Assembly: GCF_001940455.1 (NCBI RefSeq)
Contig: NZ_MKQR01000009.1
Location: 1-64,000 of the forward strand
Direction of reading: 5' to 3'
Source of the DNA: Actinokineospora bangkokensis
Lineage (GTDB): Bacteria; Actinomycetota; Actinomycetes; Mycobacteriales; Pseudonocardiaceae
Length of the DNA stretch: 64,000 nt
The notes beneath the pieces were generated by a model, which saw only the letters and a program-made list of their open reading frames with translations, had not been told where the DNA came from and ran no database searches. Below, in pieces: positions 42,509 through 52,371 of the stretch. A program made the translations under genes and the position numbers. Every line of letters begins with the position of its first letter. Positions within the stretch are counted from its first letter, which is position 1.

Positions 42509-42598
42509 CGCGCGTCCCCCACCGCGCCCGGCCGGGAACAAAACCGGTCGCGCCCCGCGCTGGCCCTGGGGTACCTGTTGCCCCGGGGGTGGGAGACC

Positions 42599-43822
42599 AT
42601 GACCAACTCGCAAGCGGTCGCGCGCGGACCGCGGGCCCGCGTCATCCTGGTGCTGGGCGCGCTCATCGCGCTCGGCCCGCTCACCATCGACATGTACCTG
42701 CCCGCCCTGCCCGAGCTGGGCACCGAGCTGCGGGCGGCGCCGTCGATGGTGCAGCTGACGCTGACCGGCACGCTCATCGGGCTGGCCCTGGGCACGCTGG
42801 TCATCGGGCCGCTGTCGGACGCGCTGGGCAGGCGCAAGCCGGTCGTGCTGGGCATCTCCGTGCACGTGGCGGCCTCGCTGCTGTGCCTGGTCGCGCCGTC
42901 GATCGAGGTGCTGGGCCTGCTGCGGGTCGTGCAGGGCATGGGCGGCGCCGCGGCCTCGGTGGTCGCCTTCGCCGTCGTGCGCGACCTGTACGAGGGGCAC
43001 GCGGCCGCGGTCGCGATGACCCGGCTGATGCTGGTGATGGGCACCGCGCCGGTGCTGGCGCCGTCGCTGGGCGCGGCGGTGCTGCTGGCCGGGTCGTGGC
43101 GCTGGGTGTTCGCCGTGCTGGCCGGGCTGGGCCTGGTGCTGATCGCGGTGGCCCACTTCCTGCTGCCGGAGACCCTGGACCAGGCCCGGCGCAGGCCGCT
43201 GGCCCTGCGCTCGGTGCTGGGCACCTACCGGGGGCTGCTCGCCGACACCCGGTTCGTCGTGCTCGCCGCGGTGGCCGCGCTGTCGATGGGCGTGCTGTTC
43301 GCCTACGTCGGCGGGTCGAGCTTCGTGCTCCAGGACCAGTTCGGCCTCGACGAGCAGCAGTTCGGGCTCGTCTTCGCCGTCGGCGCGGTCTCCCAGTTCG
43401 GGCTGTCGCAGTTCAACCCGCTGCTGCTGCGCCGGATGCCGCCGGAGCGGGTGGTGTTCTGGGCGCTGAGCGCGGGGCTGTTCTTCGCCGTCGTCCTGCT
43501 GGTGGTCACCACCACCGGGTTCGGTGGGCTGGTCGGCTTCCTGGTGCCGGTGATCGCGCTGCTGACCTCGGTGGGCTTCGTGCTGCCGAACGCGCCCGCG
43601 CTGGCCCTGTCCCGCCACGGCGAGGCCGCGGGCACCGCCTCGGCCCTGCTGAGCGCCGCGCAGTTCACCACCGCCGCGCTGGTGGCGCCGCTGGTGGGCG
43701 TGCTCGGCAACGACGGCCCGGCGATGGCGGCCACCATGGTCGGCGGCCTGGTCATCGCCTGGGTGGCGCTGGTCGCGGTCAACCGCGCCGGGGCGAGGCG
43801 CGCGGAACTGGTCACGGCCTAG
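42599..43822 (+). CDS. Bcr/CflA-type multidrug efflux MFS transporter
   Basis: 407 residues with 12 predicted membrane helices. The N-terminal ALGPLTIDMYLPALPEL and GPLSDALGRRKPVVLG are characteristic of the Bcr/CflA drug/proton antiporter family, as is LGLLRVVQGMGGAAASVVAFAVVRDLY in helix 4-5. It probably exports antibiotics such as bicyclomycin-like or chloramphenicol-like compounds; the actual substrate is unknown. ATG 42599 follows GGTGGGAGACC. The stop is two bases before copy B of the dispersed 29-base repeat. Confidence 0.92.
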   Translation: MTNSQAVARGPRARVILVLGALIALGPLTIDMYLPALPELGTELRAAPSMVQLTLTGTLIGLALGTLVIGPLSDALGRRKPVVLGISVHVAASLLCLVAPSIEVLGLLRVVQGMGGAAASVVAFAVVRDLYEGHAAAVAMTRLMLVMGTAPVLAPSLGAAVLLAGSWRWVFAVLAGLGLVLIAVAHFLLPETLDQARRRPLALRSVLGTYRGLLADTRFVVLAAVAALSMGVLFAYVGGSSFVLQDQFGLDEQQFGLVFAVGAVSQFGLSQFNPLLLRRMPPERVVFWALSAGLFFAVVLLVVTTTGFGGLVGFLVPVIALLTSVGFVLPNAPALALSRHGEAAGTASALLSAAQFTTAALVAPLVGVLGNDGPAMAATMVGGLVIAWVALVAVNRAGARRAELVTA

Positions 43823-43899: not shown

Positions 43900-44199
43900 T
43901 CAGCGGCGCGGGTGGTCGCGGAAGACGACGTCGCCGTGGATGGTGCCCGCCTGGATGACGTTGCCCGCGTTGCCGGTGATCGTGTTGTGCACGGTGATCC
44001 GCTCGCCGGGCGCCTGCTGCGCCCGGCGAGCACCGTGCCAGCCGGGGGCGCCGTCGTCGGGGGAGGCCGTCACCGCCAAGGCGTTGTCGACGACCCTGGC
44101 CGCGAGCGCGGCGGTGTCGGCGATGAGCGCCCGCGGGGGTTCGCTCGCCAACCGGGCCCTGAGCGCGTTCGCCTCGGCGTGGATGTCCTTTTCGGTCAT
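43900..44199 (-). CDS. TIR-linked small protein with RHIM-like motif
   Basis: 99 residues in two parts. Residues 1-45 are helical and Ala/Arg-rich (MTEKDIHAEANALRARLASEP). Residues 72-93 (NTITGNAGNVIQAGTIHGDV) form a Gly/Asn/beta-branched segment with a V-I-Q-A-G core. This closely resembles the RHIM-like amyloid-signalling motifs (BASS3 type) found at the ends of bacterial NLR-type and effector proteins. A short charged tail follows. The ATG shares one base with the TIR stop (TGATG), so the two are translationally coupled. Amyloid formation is predicted only; the motif could instead be a simple beta-structured adapter. Confidence 0.75.
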   Translation of the reverse strand: MTEKDIHAEANALRARLASEPPRALIADTAALAARVVDNALAVTASPDDGAPGWHGARRAQQAPGERITVHNTITGNAGNVIQAGTIHGDVVFRDHPRR

Positions 44200-45122
44200 C
44201 AGCTCCCCCTCGACCAGTGGGCGGCGGTGTGGTGGCAGTCGGCCGCCAGCAGCACCCCCAGGCGCACCGCTTCCAGCGCGTGCTGCGCGCCCGGCAGGCG
44301 GGTGCCCATCTTCTCCAGCGACTCCGCGAGGTCCGCGTGCCGCCGGAAGACCTCGTGCAGGGGCTTGCCCAGCTCTCGCGCGAGGGCCTGGTGCTCCTGG
44401 GACCGGGTGAGCGCGGCGCGCAGTGCGTAGACGTCGCCGTTGAGCACGTGCGCGGTGTGCACCAACTCGGTAGGCGTATCCCCCAACTCGGTGACGAGCG
44501 CTGTGCTGTTCCCGCCAGCAGAGCGGATTGCCGCATGCGCGGTGTGCAGGTGTGCGCTGACGTCGAGCACACCGCGCAGCACGTTCGCCGTCAGCACCTC
44601 GACCGTCTCCCCGTTGTCGCACAAGGCCGGGTCCAGTGCGGGGGAGTCGACCAGCGCCCGCGCGACGGCGTGCACGCCCCGCCGGTAGACCCCTGACTCC
44701 GGCGACTCGAACCGCAGTTCGCGCCAGTCGCGGAACTGGTAGCGGTTCACCAGCGCCACCGCCGGGTCCGGCGCGGACGAGCGCGCCGACGGGTAGTCCA
44801 GGTACAGCAGCGGCAGCACCACCCGCCCGTCCTGCCGCCCACCCCGGGTGAACACGTTCAGCTCGCGCCTGCACTCGACCCGCTGGAAGAACCGCGGTGT
44901 GAGCACCGGGATGAAGTAGGCGACCGCGCGCAGCGCCTCGCCCACCTCCTCGTGCCAGGGCGCGCCCCAGTCCAGGTGGTCGAGGTCGAGCCACACCTCG
45001 GTGGGCACCCCGCTCGTCATGGTCAGCTCCGCGCCGAGGTCGCGCGCCAGCCGGGAGATCCGCCCGCCCTCGGCCTCGTCGTCGTGGCGCGAGTAGGACC
45101 AGAACGCGATCGTGCCGCTCAT
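44199..45122 (-). CDS. TIR-domain protein, putative conflict effector
   Basis: 307 residues. The N-terminal TIR domain shows the first strand TIAFWSYSRHDDEAEGGRISRLARDL, then VWLDLDHLDWGAPWHEEVGEALRAVAYFIPVLTPRFF and ECRREL, where Glu87 is placed like the catalytic glutamate of NAD-cleaving TIR domains. The C-terminal half (about 165-307) is mostly helical with no family I recognise (e.g. VLRGVLDVSAHLHTAHAAIRS). It is coupled to the small RHIM-like partner gene. The expected activity is NAD+ hydrolysis or cyclic nucleotide synthesis in anti-phage or conflict signalling. Start ATG 45122 has weak GGCGG upstream and TACCCT about 35 bases before. Confidence 0.85.
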   Translation of the reverse strand: MSGTIAFWSYSRHDDEAEGGRISRLARDLGAELTMTSGVPTEVWLDLDHLDWGAPWHEEVGEALRAVAYFIPVLTPRFFQRVECRRELNVFTRGGRQDGRVVLPLLYLDYPSARSSAPDPAVALVNRYQFRDWRELRFESPESGVYRRGVHAVARALVDSPALDPALCDNGETVEVLTANVLRGVLDVSAHLHTAHAAIRSAGGNSTALVTELGDTPTELVHTAHVLNGDVYALRAALTRSQEHQALARELGKPLHEVFRRHADLAESLEKMGTRLPGAQHALEAVRLGVLLAADCHHTAAHWSRGS

Positions 45123-45280: not shown

Positions 45281-48200
45281 TCACAGCAGGCCGAGGGCGG
45301 CCAGGTCGTCGGCGTACTTGGTGATCAGCGCCGGGGTGAGGTGCGGGATGTCCGAGCCGGTCGCGCGGACGGCCGCGTGGAACAGCGGTGCCGGGACGAC
45401 CGAGGAGTTCACCGCCGGGGTCGGGTGGGCGAAGGCGTCCATCAGCGGCAGCAGGGATCGTTGGCGCTGCTGCTCGGGCAGGCCGCGCAGGGCCGTGGTG
45501 AGCCGGTCGACCCACTGGCCGTGGTCCTCGATGCGGACGACGCGGTGGCCCGCCTCGACGAGCCAGTCGACGAAGGTGTCCAGGCCGATCCCGTCCGCGT
45601 GCGGGTTCAGCACGTTGTACGTGGTGTACCCGTCGGTCGGGGCCGCGCCGAGGTCGCTGATGGCCTTGGCGGTGAAGTCCACGGGCAGGCCGTCGTAGTG
45701 CGCGGGCCCGCCACCGGTGTGGAACGAGCGCGGGGCCAGACCGGTGACCAGGACGCTGAACAGCAGGCGCGTGAACATGTCCGGCACGTTGAGCTGCCCG
45801 GTGTAGCGGGTGTGCGCGAGGATCATGTCCGACCGGAACGCCCGCACGGGCAGACCGAACGCCTCGTGCGCCTCGCGCAGCAGCACCTCGCCCGCCCACT
45901 TGCTCGCCGCGTACCCGGTGGCGTACGAGGAGCCCAGCGCCCGCACGGGGGAGGCCTGGCGGATGTCGGCCTCCTCGTCGATGGCCGGGTCGTCGAGCAC
46001 GGCCACCGTCGACAGGTACAGCAGCGGCTTGAGCCGGGTGGTCAGCGTCACGCGGATCAGCTCCGCCGTGCCCACGACGTTGGGCCCGAACAGCTGGTCG
46101 TAGGGCAGCACGTGGTTCACCAACGCCGCGGGGTGCACGACCAGGTCCACCGACTCGGCCAACCGCCGCCACGTCCCGGCGGGCAGCCCGAGGTCCGGGT
46201 CAGCCACGTCCCCGGCCAGCACCTCCAGGTGGTCGGCGGCCACGGCGCGGAAGCGCTCCAGCAGGGCCTCGTCGCCGCTGTCGAACGCCGACTCCAGCCG
46301 GGCGCGCGCCGCGGCGGCGTCGGCGCCGCGCACCAGGCAGACCACCGTGCCGCCCACGGCCGCCACCCGGTCGAGCCACTCCAGGCACAGGAAGCGGCCC
46401 AGGTACCCGTTGGCGCCGGTCAGCAGGACCGTCCTCGGGGTGCCGGTGGGGCGGGGGAGCGCGGCGGCCGCGGCGAGGGTGTCGGCGTCGAGGAACTTCT
46501 CCAGGGTCAGGTCGGCCGCGCGGACCTCGGTGGCGCCCGCGCCGTGCACGCTCGCCGCGGTGGGGCGGGTGCCGCCGGAGGCGCGCTCGGCCTCGATGTG
46601 CGCGGCGATCGCGCGCAGGTCGTTGGCGGGGCTGATGACCACGCCCACCGGCACCGGCACGCCGAAGGTCTCGTGCAGCACCGTGGAGAACGACAGCGCC
46701 GACAGCGAGTCGCCGCCCAGCTCGGTGAAGTGGGCGTCCGGGCTGATCTGCGCGCCCGGCTGGCCCAGCAGCGCCCGCGCGGCCGAGCGCACGGTCTCCA
46801 GTACCGGGCGCTCGGCCGCGGTCCGGCGCAGCTCGCGCAGCTCCTCGACCTCGGCGCGGGCCAGGTCGGCGTAGAGCTGCTCCAAGCGGTCGCCGTAGCG
46901 CTCCTTGAGCCGGGGGCGCAGCAGCTTGCGGAGGTCGGAGAGCAGGCCGTTCTCGGTGGTGAAGGGGGTGTGCTCGACGAGGAAGTCGCGGGGGATCTCG
47001 TAGGAGTTGAACGAGCGGTCCGCCGCGACCTGGCGCAGCGCCGCGGCCAGCAGGGCGCGCAGCGCGTTCTCGTCGCCGCCGGACTCCGCCAGCGCCTGCT
47101 CGGACGGGACGAGCACCGCCAGCAGGTAGGCGCGCTCGCTGTTGCCGTAGACGTAGGACTGGCTGATCGCCGGGTGGGTGTCGAACGCGGCCTCCAGCAC
47201 CGCCACCGTGACGAACTCGCCCTGCGACAGCTTCAGCACGTTCTTGCGGCGGTCGAGGTAGGCCAGCCGGTCCGGGCCGATCTGGGCCATGATGTCGCCG
47301 GTGCGGTAGAAGCCGTCCTCGTCGAAGACCTCCGCGGTCAGCTCCGGGCGCTTGTAGTAGCCGGGCACCTGCTGGGCCGACTTCACCAGCAGCTCGCCGC
47401 GCGGGTGCGGCACGTCGGTGGTGAAGTACCCCAGCTCGGGGACGTCCACCAGCTTGTAGTCCAGCACCGGGGGCCGCATGACGTAGCCCTCGACGATGAT
47501 CATCCCCGCCTCGGTGGAGCCGTAGGCGTCGAACACCGGCCTGCCCACCACCGAGGCCAGGAACGCCGCCAGCTCCGGGGCCACCGGGGCGGTGCCCACC
47601 GCGGCGTGGGTCAGCCTGCCGCCGAGCACCCGCTCGCGCAGCTCGGCCTTGACCTGCTCCTCCTCACCCGGCCTGCGGTCGAGCTCGGCCTGGTAGCGCT
47701 GGAAGAGCATGTCGCACACCCGCGGCACCAGCAGCACCTCGGTGGGCCGCGCCAGGCCCATGTCCTCCAGCAGCGTCGACAGGTCGCTGCGCGCGGTGAA
47801 GTAGCCGCAGCCGCCCATGCTCAGCCCGCCGTAGAGGGCGACCCGGCCCGCAGCGTGGCTCATCGGCATGAAGTGGAACGTCACCGGGTCGGTGTTGTCG
47901 TTCCACCGCGCCGCCCACAGGCTCGCGACCTTGCGCTCGGTGTAGATGGCGCCCTTGGGGGCCCCGGTGCTGCCGGAGGTGTAGATCAACAGGCGCAGCG
48001 GGTCCGGGTCGCCGCCGGGGTCGGGGGCGGGGGCGGGTACCTCGGGCAGCGCGGCACCGGCCTCCCGCACCGACGCCAGGGTGCTCAGCCGCACCTGGGA
48101 GCCCGCCTCCGCGAGCGTGCGCCGGGCCTCGGCCACCGCCTCGCGCTCGTCGTCGACCTCGGGCCGGTGGTCGAACACCACGACCCGGCGCACGCACCCG

Positions 48201-48673
48201 GTGGCCAGCGCGATCCGCACCGCGGCGCCCACCCGCTCGGCGCTGGTGGCCAGCACCAGCGGCTCGGCCTCCGCGACCACCGGGATGAGCTGCTCGGCCG
48301 GGGAGTTGGCCTGCAACGGCACCGCCACCGCCCCCGCGATGAGGATCGCCAGGTCGACGGTGGTGTACTCGCGGCTGGTGAAGCCGAGGGTGGCGACGAA
48401 CCCGCCCGGGGGCAGCGGGTCGCGCTCGTCGTGGTGCCACTGGGCGGCGATGGCGGCGGCGTCCGCCCACAGCCGCGCGTAGGTGGTCGTGGAGAACGAC
48501 GGCAGCAGCCGCGCCGCCGTCCGCCCGGTGGCCGGGTCGGTCACCAGCTCCACGTCCCGCTCGGCGAGCGCGGGCCGGTCGGCGTGCTGCGCCATCGCCG
48601 CGCCCACCACGTCGCGCAGCCGCGGCCCGCCGGGCGACCCGACTTCCCGCAGCGCGCTCAACACCGTCGTCAT
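45281..48673 (-). CDS. car: Carboxylic acid reductase (A–PCP–R)
   Basis: NRPS-like enzyme of 1130 residues that reduces a carboxylic acid to its aldehyde with ATP and NADPH. The adenylation domain has [18 protein letters not shown] and [33 protein letters not shown]. The carrier domain has [14 protein letters not shown], whose Ser takes the phosphopantetheine. The reductase domain has [19 protein letters not shown] and [10 protein letters not shown] (YxxxK). Length and order fit FadD9/CAR enzymes. ATG 48673 is preceded by GAGGGGCGG. A phosphopantetheinyl transferase must come from elsewhere. The substrate could be a fatty or aryl acid. It is divergent from an unknown gene. Confidence 0.93.
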
Positions 48674-48848
48674 GTGCCGCCCCTCGGTCCGCCCCACCCC
48701 GCCGGGTGGGTGCACCAGGAAAGGTACGTCGTCGGCACCGGTGCCCCCAGTGAGATCAACGACACGGCGCGTGACACCCCCGGTACGCGGCGTGCGGCTG
48801 CCGGATGTGCCCGGAAGGTCCGCTCCCGCCGTTCGCTACCGTCGTGGT

Positions 48849-49558: not shown

Positions 49559-52210
49559 TCAACGCTCTGGCCGGGGCAGACGCGTGTGCTGCGCGTCCAA
49601 GTGGTCGCGCAGGTCGGTGAGGGCGGCGCGGTAGTTCTCCGAGTGCACGTCCGGGTGCGCCGACGCCGCTTCCCGCCACAGCGCGACCGACTGGCGCAGC
49701 GCCGTCAGCGCCTCCGCGCCCCGGTCCACCCGGTCCAGGCAGTGCGCCGACCGGCGCAGGGCCGCCGCGAGCGGGCCGATCCCCGCCTCCCGGTTCACCT
49801 CGTGCAGTTCGCGCAGCAGCGCGACGGCCTCCTCCGCGACCTTGACCGCCTCGGCGTCCTCGCGCACCCCCAGCAGGTGCCCGGCCAGGGCGTGCAGCCA
49901 CGCGCCCAGGTGCGGCAGGGCCCGGTGCCGGTTCCACTCCGCCAGCTCCCGGCCCGCCTCCACCGCCGCCCGCATCGACCCCGCCGCGTCGTCCGGCCGC
50001 CGGACGGCGCGCAGGCACTCCGCGCGCAGGGCGAGCGCGGTGCCCAGGCCGCGCAGGTGGGTCCGCCGGTCGACCGCCACCAGCACCCGGAAGTGGCCCA
50101 GCGCCTCGTCGGCGACCGGCAGCGCCTCGGCGGCCCGGCCCGCCGCGCGCAACCGGTCGGCCACCGCCAGCAGGGTCGTGGCCAGGTCGGGGATGCCGTC
50201 GCGCAACCGCCGCCGCTGCGCCAGCGCCTCCTCGACGGCGGAGAGGGCCTCGGCGGGGCGGCCCAGCTTGTCGAGCCGGTCGCTCAGGCTCGTCAGCACC
50301 GTCGCCAGCGCCGCCACGTGGGAGACCTCGTCGTGGCCGCGCAGCAGCGCGATCGCCTGCCTGCCCGTGGCGACGGCCTCGTCGGGGCGGCCCGCGAAGT
50401 CGAGGCTCACGCTCAGCTCGTCGAGGTCCGCCGCCCGCGCCAGCCGGGTGCCCGAGGCGGGGGAGCGGCGCGCGACGTCGACGGCTTCCTCGTAGCGGCC
50501 CAGGTAGCGCAGCCGCTCGACCAGCGTTCCCCGCACCCACCACAGCAACCCGGGGGCGTCCGCGTCCGGTGCCCGCTCCACCGCGGCCACGGCGTCCTGC
50601 GCGGCGGCGAGCGCCCCCTCCGGGTCCCCCAAGTCGGCCAGGCAGTCGCTCACCGCGGTCAACGAGCGGGCCACCCCCTGCGGCGCGTCGTCGCGGTCCC
50701 ACGCCCCCTGCCACAGCGCGAGCGCCTTGCGGTGCGAGGACAGGGCGTCCGCCGAGTGCCCGAGCACCCGCCACTGCATGCCCAGCAGGTCCCACGCCCG
50801 CGCGGTGTCCACCCGGTCCGCGCGCGGGTCGGCCAGCACCACCTGGATCTGGCGGATCGCCAGCGCCAGCCGCAACCGGGCGAACCCGCGCGGCGCCTCC
50901 TCCACCGCCAGCGACGGCACCTCGGGGGCGTCGCGCACCACGGCCGCCAGCATGGCGTCCACGGCGATGTCCCCCGGCAGGACCGCGAACACCGCGCGCA
51001 GCCCCGGGTCCAGCACGCCGCGGTTCGCGGTGAAGACGTGCTTGAGCAACCCCAGCACGTGCTCGGGGAAGTCCTGGTGGGTGCGGGTCAGCAGCCGGAC
51101 CACCGGGCCCGCCGTCTCCGGGGTCAGCCGCGTCAGCGCCTCGGGCTCCAGGTGGTTGGCCACCAACCACTCCGCCACCGCCATCGGCCGCAACCGGGGG
51201 CGGTGGTCGGTGCCCGGCGGGTAGCGCTGCCACACCCACTCCACCACGGCCACGAGCGCGGCGGTGGGGTGGTCGGCGAAGCGCGGCAGGCACCGCAGGG
51301 TGATCACCCCCGCGTAGGGGTCCGGGGCGGGCACCGCCACCAGCGCGGCGACGGCGGCGAGCAGGTCGTCACCGGGCAGCGGCGCACCGCGCCACCGCAC
51401 GGTCTCCAGCGTCAGCAGCTCCGCGGCGACGTCCCGGGCGGTCACCGAGCGGGAGTCGGTGCGGTGCGCCACCGCGAGCAAGGCCCTGGCGTGCACGAGG
51501 AACACCGTGTCGCCGTCCGCACCCACCCCCGCGGCGCCGAACGGCGGCACACCGGTGCGCAGCTCCTTGGCGTAGGCGCGGACGGCGTCGGTGTACCAGC
51601 GCACCCGGTCGGTCGGCCCGCCGAACGCCGAGAGCACCACCGGTGGCGCGTCGACGCCGAAGCCGAGCGAGGCGCGCAGCCGCTCGGCGTCGCGCGCCAG
51701 CAGCAGGACCCGCACGGGCACGGTCGCCCGCGCCACCACCGCCAGCAGCTCGGGCAGGTCCGACCGCAGCTCGGCGTCGTCCACCAGCACCAGCGAAGGC
51801 CCCCGCACCGCACCGGTCAGGCCGTCCACCCGACGCAACCACCCCGCCGACCACGGCCGCGGCAGCGCCTCGGCCACCGCCACCGCCAACCGGGTCTTGC
51901 CCACCCCCGCGGGTCCGCCCAGCACCCGCACCGACACGCCCGTCCCCGAACACCACTCCACCAGCTCGGCGCGCTCGCGCCGCCACCCCCACAACCGCGT
52001 CACCGGCGCCGAGAGCAACCACAGCGGTTCGGTCGACCGCGTGGGCCGGACCGGCGCGAACACCCGCTCCCACGCCACCGCGCGCCGGTCCCGGCGCCTG
52101 CGCCGCCGCCGGAGCACCACCCACACCGCGGTCGCGAGCAGCACCGAGGCGCCGGCGGCCGCGGCGTAGCGCCCCCAGCCCCGCGTCCACGCCTCCGCCA
52201 GCCAGCCCAC
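49559..52210 (-). CDS. Membrane-anchored STAND-like NTPase with TPR-like repeats
   Basis: About 883 residues. An N-terminal transmembrane helix (YAAAAGASVLLATAVWVVL) is followed by a run of arginines, placing the rest in the cytoplasm. The NTPase shows Walker A GGPAGVGKTRLAVAVAE and Walker B-like SLVLVDDAEL. The C-terminal half consists of helical repeats of TPR type, e.g. GDPEGALAAAQDAVAAVERA, GRPDEAVATGRQAIALLR, GRPAEALSAVEEALAQRRRL. This resembles STAND signalling ATPases (AfsR/NLR-like) without an obvious effector domain. GTG 52210 is chosen for GGAGG six bases upstream. A sensor or scaffold role is inferred. Confidence 0.85.
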   Translation of the reverse strand: MGWLAEAWTRGWGRYAAAAGASVLLATAVWVVLRRRRRRRDRRAVAWERVFAPVRPTRSTEPLWLLSAPVTRLWGWRRERAELVEWCSGTGVSVRVLGGPAGVGKTRLAVAVAEALPRPWSAGWLRRVDGLTGAVRGPSLVLVDDAELRSDLPELLAVVARATVPVRVLLLARDAERLRASLGFGVDAPPVVLSAFGGPTDRVRWYTDAVRAYAKELRTGVPPFGAAGVGADGDTVFLVHARALLAVAHRTDSRSVTARDVAAELLTLETVRWRGAPLPGDDLLAAVAALVAVPAPDPYAGVITLRCLPRFADHPTAALVAVVEWVWQRYPPGTDHRPRLRPMAVAEWLVANHLEPEALTRLTPETAGPVVRLLTRTHQDFPEHVLGLLKHVFTANRGVLDPGLRAVFAVLPGDIAVDAMLAAVVRDAPEVPSLAVEEAPRGFARLRLALAIRQIQVVLADPRADRVDTARAWDLLGMQWRVLGHSADALSSHRKALALWQGAWDRDDAPQGVARSLTAVSDCLADLGDPEGALAAAQDAVAAVERAPDADAPGLLWWVRGTLVERLRYLGRYEEAVDVARRSPASGTRLARAADLDELSVSLDFAGRPDEAVATGRQAIALLRGHDEVSHVAALATVLTSLSDRLDKLGRPAEALSAVEEALAQRRRLRDGIPDLATTLLAVADRLRAAGRAAEALPVADEALGHFRVLVAVDRRTHLRGLGTALALRAECLRAVRRPDDAAGSMRAAVEAGRELAEWNRHRALPHLGAWLHALAGHLLGVREDAEAVKVAEEAVALLRELHEVNREAGIGPLAAALRRSAHCLDRVDRGAEALTALRQSVALWREAASAHPDVHSENYRAALTDLRDHLDAQHTRLPRPER

Positions 52211-52371
52211 TGCCCACCTCCGCGGCGCACGCCCAGCCTTCCCACGGTCGCACACGCGGGCGCCGATGCCCACCGCCATTCCGGGGGTGCGCCCGGCGGC
52301 GGCGGGCACGCGCGGTGACACCCCGGGCCCCCGTCACCTGTCGGGTGGCGGACCCCCGGGGTGCCGAACTA

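What the first reader, a model, noticed from the sequence alone, without database searches (positions are those of the whole stretch)
43900..45122. Two-gene TIR plus RHIM-like small protein system
A TIR-domain protein with a plausible catalytic Glu87 is translationally coupled to a 99-residue protein ending in a V-I-Q-A-G motif flanked by Gly/Asn-rich beta-prone sequence, much like the RHIM-related bacterial amyloid-signalling (BASS3) motifs. In known systems these motifs sit on NLR-type sensors and effectors. Here the motif is on a tiny separate partner beside a TIR effector, which suggests amyloid seeding or nucleated TIR assembly in a cell-suicide or anti-phage system.
Basis: partly seen in the sequence, partly recalled or inferred. 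Interest (0 to 1): 0.78.

Follow-up and report, generated by a model that had tools for sequence, protein, structure and literature searches.

The report
TIR enzyme with amyloid-motif partner protein
A soil bacterium carries a TIR-type enzyme gene joined to a tiny gene whose protein ends in the sort of short sticky motif that bacterial immune sensors and killer proteins share, which suggests that the tiny protein is a plug-in adaptor that gathers and switches on the TIR enzyme; this has not been tested at the bench.

Summary
Window 44199-45122(-) encodes a 307-aa protein with a TIR fold and an invariant Glu87. Its stop overlaps the ATG of a 99-aa protein (43900-44199, -) that ends in NTITGNAGNVIQAGTIHGDVVF plus six residues. 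A motif profile built without this protein scores it 40.5 bits; the best of 20,000 shuffles scored 11.8. A strict pattern for the motif hits 70 of 249 family genomes (reversed pattern: 3). By simple rules, 70 of 111 distinct copies lie at NLR N-termini and 9 at C-termini, one of them on a Bell-like protein next to a motif-bearing NLR. So it is a signalling-amyloid-type motif by position.

The BASS3/RHIM label is not supported: the one published BASS3 peptide I could test scores like its shuffles, and the core is IQAG, not G-phi-Q-phi-G.

The same two-gene unit occurs in Actinokineospora pegani at another site (TIR 44%, partner 39% identical); a third partner exists in Actinokineospora sp. G85. 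The pair was found in 2 of 390 family genomes.

Best reading: a split TIR effector whose amyloid-type receiving motif sits on a separate adaptor. Neither an adjacent motif-bearing NLR nor a closely matching sensor was found. Fibre formation, NADase activity and phage defence are untested.

The parts
44199..45122 (-). TIR-domain protein gene, 307 aa, stop codon included
   Evidence: ORF; PF13676; fold; 44% identical relative in A. pegani over the whole length
44637..45116 (-). TIR domain, residues 3-162
44862..44864 (-). codon of Glu87, candidate catalytic Glu in C84-R-R-E87-L
   Evidence: invariant in 30 of 30 aligned rows
44202..44636 (-). C-terminal helical region of the TIR protein (residues 163-307), possible docking region for the partner (inference)
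   Evidence: helices in the model at 10-residue pLDDT means of 38-67
43900..44199 (-). partner gene, 99 aa, ATG overlapping the TIR stop by one base
   Evidence: relatives P0034 (A. pegani, 113 aa) and P0035 (Actinokineospora sp. G85, 106 aa)
44065..44193 (-). two-helix head of the partner (residues 3-45)
   Evidence: helices 3-17 and 22-45, pLDDT means 87-94 over residues 1-40, 64 for 41-50
44002..44064 (-). linker of the partner (residues 46-66)
   Evidence: low pLDDT, no structure
43918..43992 (-). C-terminal signalling-amyloid-type motif (TVHNTITGNAGNVIQAGTIHGDVVF region)
   Evidence: profile match; leave-out score; weak two-strand arch, 67-75 and 81-90, pLDDT about 55-60

Best explanation
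A two-protein effector unit. The TIR protein is the enzyme, probably an NAD+-cleaving one. The small partner is an adaptor: its two-helix head probably holds the TIR protein through that protein's C-terminal helical region, a flexible linker follows, and the last 30 or so residues are a motif of the kind that passes an amyloid fold from NLR sensors to effectors. When the motif is templated, or nucleates by itself, the adaptors stack, bring TIR domains together and so switch on NAD+ consumption and cell death or dormancy, most likely as a defence response. Shown here: the two genes, the TIR fold and conserved Glu, gene overlap, the motif family and its positions, and the pair recurring elsewhere. 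Inferred: head-TIR contact, amyloid formation, NADase activity, defence role. The template source is open: a motif-bearing NLR encoded elsewhere (sub-version about 0.3) or none (about 0.2).
For: Motif outside chance. By rule, 70 of 111 distinct copies lie upstream of NLR signatures (at least one, L101, looks like chance) and 9 lie near C-termini, including a Bell-like protein next to a motif-bearing NLR (L144) and a cyclase-like protein about 0.9 kb from one (L125, variant IQVG). TIR relative plus motif-ending partner with overlapping start in A. pegani, elsewhere in that genome, while A. pegani has relatives of the window's flanking genes next to each other without the pair: the two genes travel together. 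TIR fold close to NADase TIRs, Glu87 invariant. Partner has a head-linker-arch layout. Published: BASS motifs occur, less often, with TIR domains (PMC7889193, passage).
Against: No NLR carrying the motif lies beside the pair: the window has only this one copy. The own genome's other carriers (NLRs on C29 and C13, a STAND-like protein on C2, a Bell-like one on C9) are diverged and align to the partner motif worse than the median of the compared cores (the comparison set was picked for QAG, which favours it). No contact between partner and TIR was modelled. Only 2 of 390 family genomes showed the pair. The motif's beta arch has low confidence. The other own-genome carriers show that the motif is not tied to TIRs. 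No known defence-system match was found.
Confidence: 0.5

Rival explanations
1. The partner is a brake or antitoxin: it binds the TIR protein and keeps it inactive, and its motif is what a sensor or invader captures to release the TIR enzyme.
For: Small gene, overlapping and downstream of a probably toxic enzyme, together in both genomes in which the DNA was read; helical head.
Against: The C-terminal motif is of the class placed on effectors and on NLRs, where it is thought to recruit and activate; nothing points to inhibition.
Confidence: 0.17
2. The motif is a non-amyloid docking tag: it adds a beta strand to, or pairs with, another protein carrying the motif, without fibres.
For: The core is not the RHIM/BASS3 core; the model shows only a weak two-strand arch; fibre formation of this QAG class was not found in print in my searches.
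Against: A Gly/Asn/Gln-containing pattern shared between a Bell-like C-terminus and a neighbouring NLR N-terminus, the genomic logic by which BASS amyloid motifs were defined (PMC7889193; PMC12261475).
Confidence: 0.18
3. The two genes are neighbours with separate roles; the partner works with an NLR or Bell-like protein elsewhere and the TIR protein acts alone.
For: Orphan small proteins ending in the motif, with no TIR or NLR next door as judged by eye from a crude gene call, exist in the family (L098, L100, L120, L154, L161); TIR relatives that came with DNA show no motif nearby.
Against: Gene overlap in both species and presence of the pair at different sites; no partner-family gene away from its TIR among 390 genomes (only the best first-look candidates, 5 and 12 a genome, were scored).
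Confidence: 0.12
4. Chance or decayed sequence: the motif resemblance carries no function.
For: Few sequences known (3 partners).
Against: Score far outside shuffles; motif kept in three species while linker length differs; GC3 0.95.
Confidence: 0.03

Closest known systems
NLR-Bell amyloid signalosomes with BASS motifs (Dyrka et al. 2020, not seen; known to me through passages of PMC7889193, PMC8086366, PMC12261475)
   Same: C-terminal Gly/Asn/Gln motif on a small protein; the same motif family sits on NLR N-termini in related genomes, once next to a Bell-like protein (L144; 'Bell-like' is a recalled label).
   Different: No motif-bearing NLR next door; the motif is on a small helical protein joined to a TIR gene; not the BASS3 type tested. 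Which of BASS1-10 it belongs to, if any, could not be tested.
BASS motifs associated with TIR domains (mentioned as less frequent in PMC7889193, passage)
   Same: TIR domain linked to an amyloid-signalling motif.
   Different: Here the TIR chain has no motif; the motif is on a second polypeptide. I have not seen the published TIR examples, so how they are built is not compared.
TRIF (animal adaptor with TIR domain and RHIM; PMC9444067 abstract in listing)
   Same: Links a TIR domain with a short amyloid-type motif.
   Different: One chain and an adaptor TIR in TRIF; two chains and a probable enzyme TIR here. An analogy only.
SPARTA TIR-APAZ / AbTir / SARM1 NADase TIR domains
   Different: No APAZ match; the C-terminal helical region has no Pfam match.
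TIR-like protein FxsC (NF040588)
   Same: Best NCBIfam match, 43.3 bits, over residues 7-130.
   Different: Far below the curated cut-off of 130 bits.

Membership tests
TIR domain, NADase type | TIR fold | tested here: met
TIR domain, NADase type | conserved catalytic Glu in a C-x-x-E motif | tested here: met
   E87 invariant in 30 of 30 rows; its equivalence to the catalytic Glu of SARM1/AbTir is recalled knowledge, not superposed here
TIR domain, NADase type | cleaves NAD+ | not testable with these tools
   needs an enzyme assay
BASS3 (RHIM-related) | similarity to a published BASS3 motif | tested here: not met
   Frankia ORT49035.1 peptide (sequence from PMC8086366): 2.9 bits, 130 of 2000 shuffles as high; archaeal BASS3-like peptide -0.7 bits. 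One true BASS3 peptide only
BASS3 (RHIM-related) | G-(I,V)-Q-(I,V)-G core and second conserved Q seven residues on | tested here: not met
   core N-V-I-Q-A-G, Asp at +7; core definition from PMC7885112, Q spacing from PMC9815663
BASS3 (RHIM-related) | match to the published BASS3 profile HMM | not testable with these tools
   that HMM is not held
BASS-type signalling motif in general | motif shared by NLR N-terminus and C-terminus of an effector in a neighbouring gene | tested here: inconclusive
   met for the motif family (L144; by rule 70 NLR-side and 9 C-terminal of 111 copies); not met at this locus, no motif-bearing NLR in the window
BASS-type signalling motif in general | forms self-seeding amyloid | not testable with these tools
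   needs ThT, fibre or foci tests
Known anti-phage TIR systems (PADLOC models) | clear match to a known system's component | tested here: not met
   best PADLOC matches of the TIR protein are partial (PDC-S66 5.8e-6, residues 41-105; Aga_TIR 7.3e-4); partner none
FxsC | NF040588 above curated cut-off | tested here: not met
   43.3 bits against 130

The most novel reading that the evidence does not exclude
A self-contained, NLR-free amyloid switch for a TIR enzyme: two genes only, in which the small partner is both trigger and scaffold. It stays soluble above its nucleation threshold until an invader-linked event seeds it, and its stacking activates the TIR NADase. It would be a signalling amyloid in bacteria that does not depend on an NLR.
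Probability: 0.17. Interest if true: 0.85.

Novelty: new variant of a known kind. Interest (0 to 1): 0.6.

Why it matters
Amyloid signalling in bacteria is described from NLR-effector pairs in which the effector chain carries the motif. A 2021 review names as open whether fungi and bacteria have signalling amyloids in pathways not dependent on NLRs (PMC7889193, passage). This pair is a small, two-gene, easily cloned case: a probable enzyme with a simple readout (NAD+) and a 99-residue motif carrier, with no motif-bearing NLR next door. It would also show that the motif can be moved off the enzyme onto an interchangeable adaptor, a modular way to wire TIR enzymes to different sensors, and a bacterial parallel to the TIR-RHIM linkage in animal TRIF.

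Tried and rejected
Partner against Pfam, NCBIfam and PADLOC: no match. Partner alone against the protein database found only itself at E 0.01; the two-row profile found the A. pegani and G85 relatives. TIR against PDB sequences: one match at E 0.34, taken as chance. Motif near other TIRs: nothing above 11 bits in 34 TIR loci (4, 30); in loci L045-L075 (those and 30 other than the window's own) only the A. pegani copy above 8 bits. Flanks were 1.5 kb except L045-L046. One search counted 141 TIR matches in 16 genomes and 30 came with DNA; four rows had no new DNA. Motif partners beside the unread ones are not excluded. Same-genome sensor with a matching motif: not found. BASS3 membership: rejected as above. 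Rfam and tRNA scans of the window: nothing. The TIR gene in Actinokineospora sp. G85 could not be looked up: no third partner was found in the 16 genus genomes held. Text search for VVQAG with amyloid: 0 papers.

The class sample (394 genomes) gave four further TIR relatives, matching only the TIR part, with no motif above 11 bits near them.

Full report
What is there. The window is part of a 7.45-Mb genome (G000, contig C9). Its genus holds Actinokineospora pegani: G136 contig C39 has the same length (147,927) as the named record NZ_WHOL01000039.1, and the same TIR lies on both. On the minus strand, a 307-aa TIR protein (44199-45122) is followed by a 99-aa protein (43900-44199) whose ATG shares a base with the TIR stop, TGATG. 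Codon-position GC (0.71/0.55/0.95; TIR gene 0.74/0.49/0.94) says that the small frame is coding. The neighbours are a gene that looks like an MFS transporter (42578-43822, +; label by eye, not from a family scan) and a carboxylic acid reductase-like gene (45281-48715, -; AMP-binding, PP-binding and NAD_binding_4 domains).

The partner and its motif. No Pfam, NCBIfam or PADLOC family matches. Search of 5.8 billion proteins with the protein alone found only itself. With the A. pegani partner added, it also found a 106-aa protein of Actinokineospora sp. G85. The three share N, G, IQAG, IHG and V of the motif, while linker lengths differ. The model, from three sequences, has two helices (3-17, 22-45; pLDDT means 87-94 to residue 40), a linker without structure, and strands 67-75 and 81-90 at pLDDT about 55-60. 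A profile made from 29 other motif cores, without the three partners, scores the partner 40.5, the A. pegani partner 33.7 and the G85 partner 29.0 bits; 20,000 shuffles of the window's partner reach at most 11.8, and the next place in the window 5.2.

Where the motif lives. A strict DNA pattern for [VIM][VI]QAGxx[HN]G occurs once in the own genome and in 70 of 249 family genomes; the same pattern read backwards, the tool's control, hits in 3 of 249. I read the DNA around the listed hits (30 loci and 82 more), 111 distinct copies. By simple rules, 70 have a P-loop within 200 residues or an R-Q-L-P-like stretch within 70 residues downstream, as in NLR-like proteins (60 have the P-loop; L101, with the stretch only and 14.3 bits, looks like chance), 9 lie within 30 residues of a C-terminus, and 32 fit neither rule. 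The 32 include further N-terminal cases and some that look like chance frames, such as L007, L033, L112 and L127. Of the 9 C-terminal ones, two are the TIR partners; L100 and L144 are Bell-like (a recalled label); and in L144 the next gene is an NLR with the motif at its N-terminus, the published arrangement for amyloid signalosomes. L125 has a cyclase-like protein (label by eye, no Pfam match) ending in a variant (IQVG), about 0.9 kb from an NLR that carries the motif.

Is it BASS3? The one BASS3 peptide whose sequence I could read in print (Frankia ORT49035.1, PMC8086366, passages) scores 2.9 bits against the profile, and 130 of 2000 shuffles of it do as well; the archaeal BASS3-like peptide scores -0.7. 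The RHIM core is given as G-(I,V)-Q-(I,V)-G (PMC7885112, passages); here it is V-I-Q-A-G. The BASS3 of Streptomyces atratus has glutamines 113 and 120 whose change to proline abolishes foci (PMC9815663, passages); here there is no second Q. So the motif belongs to another class within the same genomic logic. Which of BASS1-10 it is, or whether it is unlisted, I could not test: the profiles and the founding paper (Dyrka et al. 2020) were not available to me.

The pair recurs. In A. pegani a TIR protein 44% identical over its whole length is followed by a 113-aa partner ending in NIVSGGHHGSIIQAGQIHGSVHY plus five residues, with a 4-base overlap GTGA. Of 16 genus genomes, 3 have a TIR relative at E 1e-6, and two of them align over the full length. 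In 390 family genomes, 31 have a TIR match at E 1e-15, two over the full length, and the partner profile is found at E 1e-9 in the same two; both searches scored only the best first-look candidates of each genome, 5 and 12. Other TIR relatives match over the TIR part mainly, have open frames mostly of 300-520 aa, and show no motif within the flanks that I had. In A. pegani relatives of the reductase and MFS genes are about 540 bases apart with no TIR between them (L250: reductase frame ends 4767, MFS frame 5305); the gap holds a scrap that looks like an IS transposase end (label by eye). Its TIR pair lies on contig C39 instead. Seven of the 16 genomes have a reductase relative at E 1e-100; only A. 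pegani had the MFS gene in the flank. The two genes therefore seem to move as a unit, on the evidence of two species.

A sensor? None is beside the pair. About 4.4 kb upstream lies a 920-aa protein with a membrane segment by eye, a weak STAND match and TPRs, without the motif. Elsewhere the own genome has an NB-ARC-TPR protein with a degenerate N-terminal motif (C29, 19.2 bits), an NB-ARC protein (C13, 12.2), a cyclase-like/STAND-like gene pair with V-Q-A-H motifs (C2, 16.1 and 9.7; labels by eye), and a Bell-like protein (C9:560602, 16.6). For C13 and the two C2 motifs 1 to 5 of 2000 shuffles scored as high, so these are weak. Aligned to the partner motif the five score 36-53, below the median of 65 for all compared cores; the set was picked with QAG in it, so this test leans against them. 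A sensor in trans is possible but not pointed to. Other genus members have up to 25 motif matches at E 0.5, the own genome 3, A. pegani 2 and one genome none.

Reading. The simplest account is a split effector: enzyme in one chain, amyloid-type receiver in an adaptor. That BASS motifs occur with TIR domains is in print (PMC7889193, passage). I found no report of a TIR gene with a separate motif-bearing partner in searches of open papers (listings seen, passages read in six papers: PMC8086366, PMC9815663, PMC7889193, PMC12261475, PMC7885112, PMC12881547); most subscription papers are not covered. Confidence in the adaptor reading is about 0.5. The motif's amyloid nature, the head-TIR contact, the NADase activity and the defence role are all inferences that a few standard assays would settle.

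Noticed in passing
L078:6940-9602(-), own genome C2; L242 (A. pegani C96): A cyclase-like protein ending in NTVYGAMHGVQAHTINGGVNL overlaps a STAND-like protein that begins near NKTNDNSGVQAHVVNGDINI (labels by eye; no Pfam match); a similar N-terminus (NHGVQAGQINGDISI) exists in A. pegani. Looks like a second, different effector-sensor motif pair.
   Followed up: partly
L245:1501-1980(-) (own genome C9:560602); L240 (A. pegani C107): Bell-like small protein ending in SVSGTVLGKVTQIGGDVHGDISF; a relative in A. pegani ends in TISGTVHGTAIQIAGDVSGDIRL.
   Followed up: partly
L076:9818-11932(+), own genome C29: NB-ARC-TPR protein with a degenerate motif at its N-terminus (NTISGAVAGNVVQAASVRDVHF), possibly a sensor; no effector ending in the motif was noticed beside it.
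   Followed up: partly
L161, L154, L120, L098: Small proteins with a membrane-helix-like N-terminal part and the motif at the C-terminus; no NLR or TIR seen by eye among the genes called in the 8-12 kb read.
   Followed up: no
L023, L024, L169: Adjacent overlapping frames that both carry the motif on proteins with LGFP-like repeats (label by eye), not NLRs.
   Followed up: no
L250:4768-5304 (A. pegani C86): The gap between the reductase and MFS genes, which holds the TIR pair in the window, holds a transposase-like scrap in A. pegani: a possible insertion hotspot.
   Followed up: partly
window 49559-52321(-): 920-aa TPR protein with a weak STAND match and an N-terminal membrane segment by eye, near the pair but without the motif.
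   Followed up: no
genus genomes: Very uneven load of the motif: from 0 to 25 matches per genome at E 0.5 within 16 genomes of one genus.
   Followed up: no
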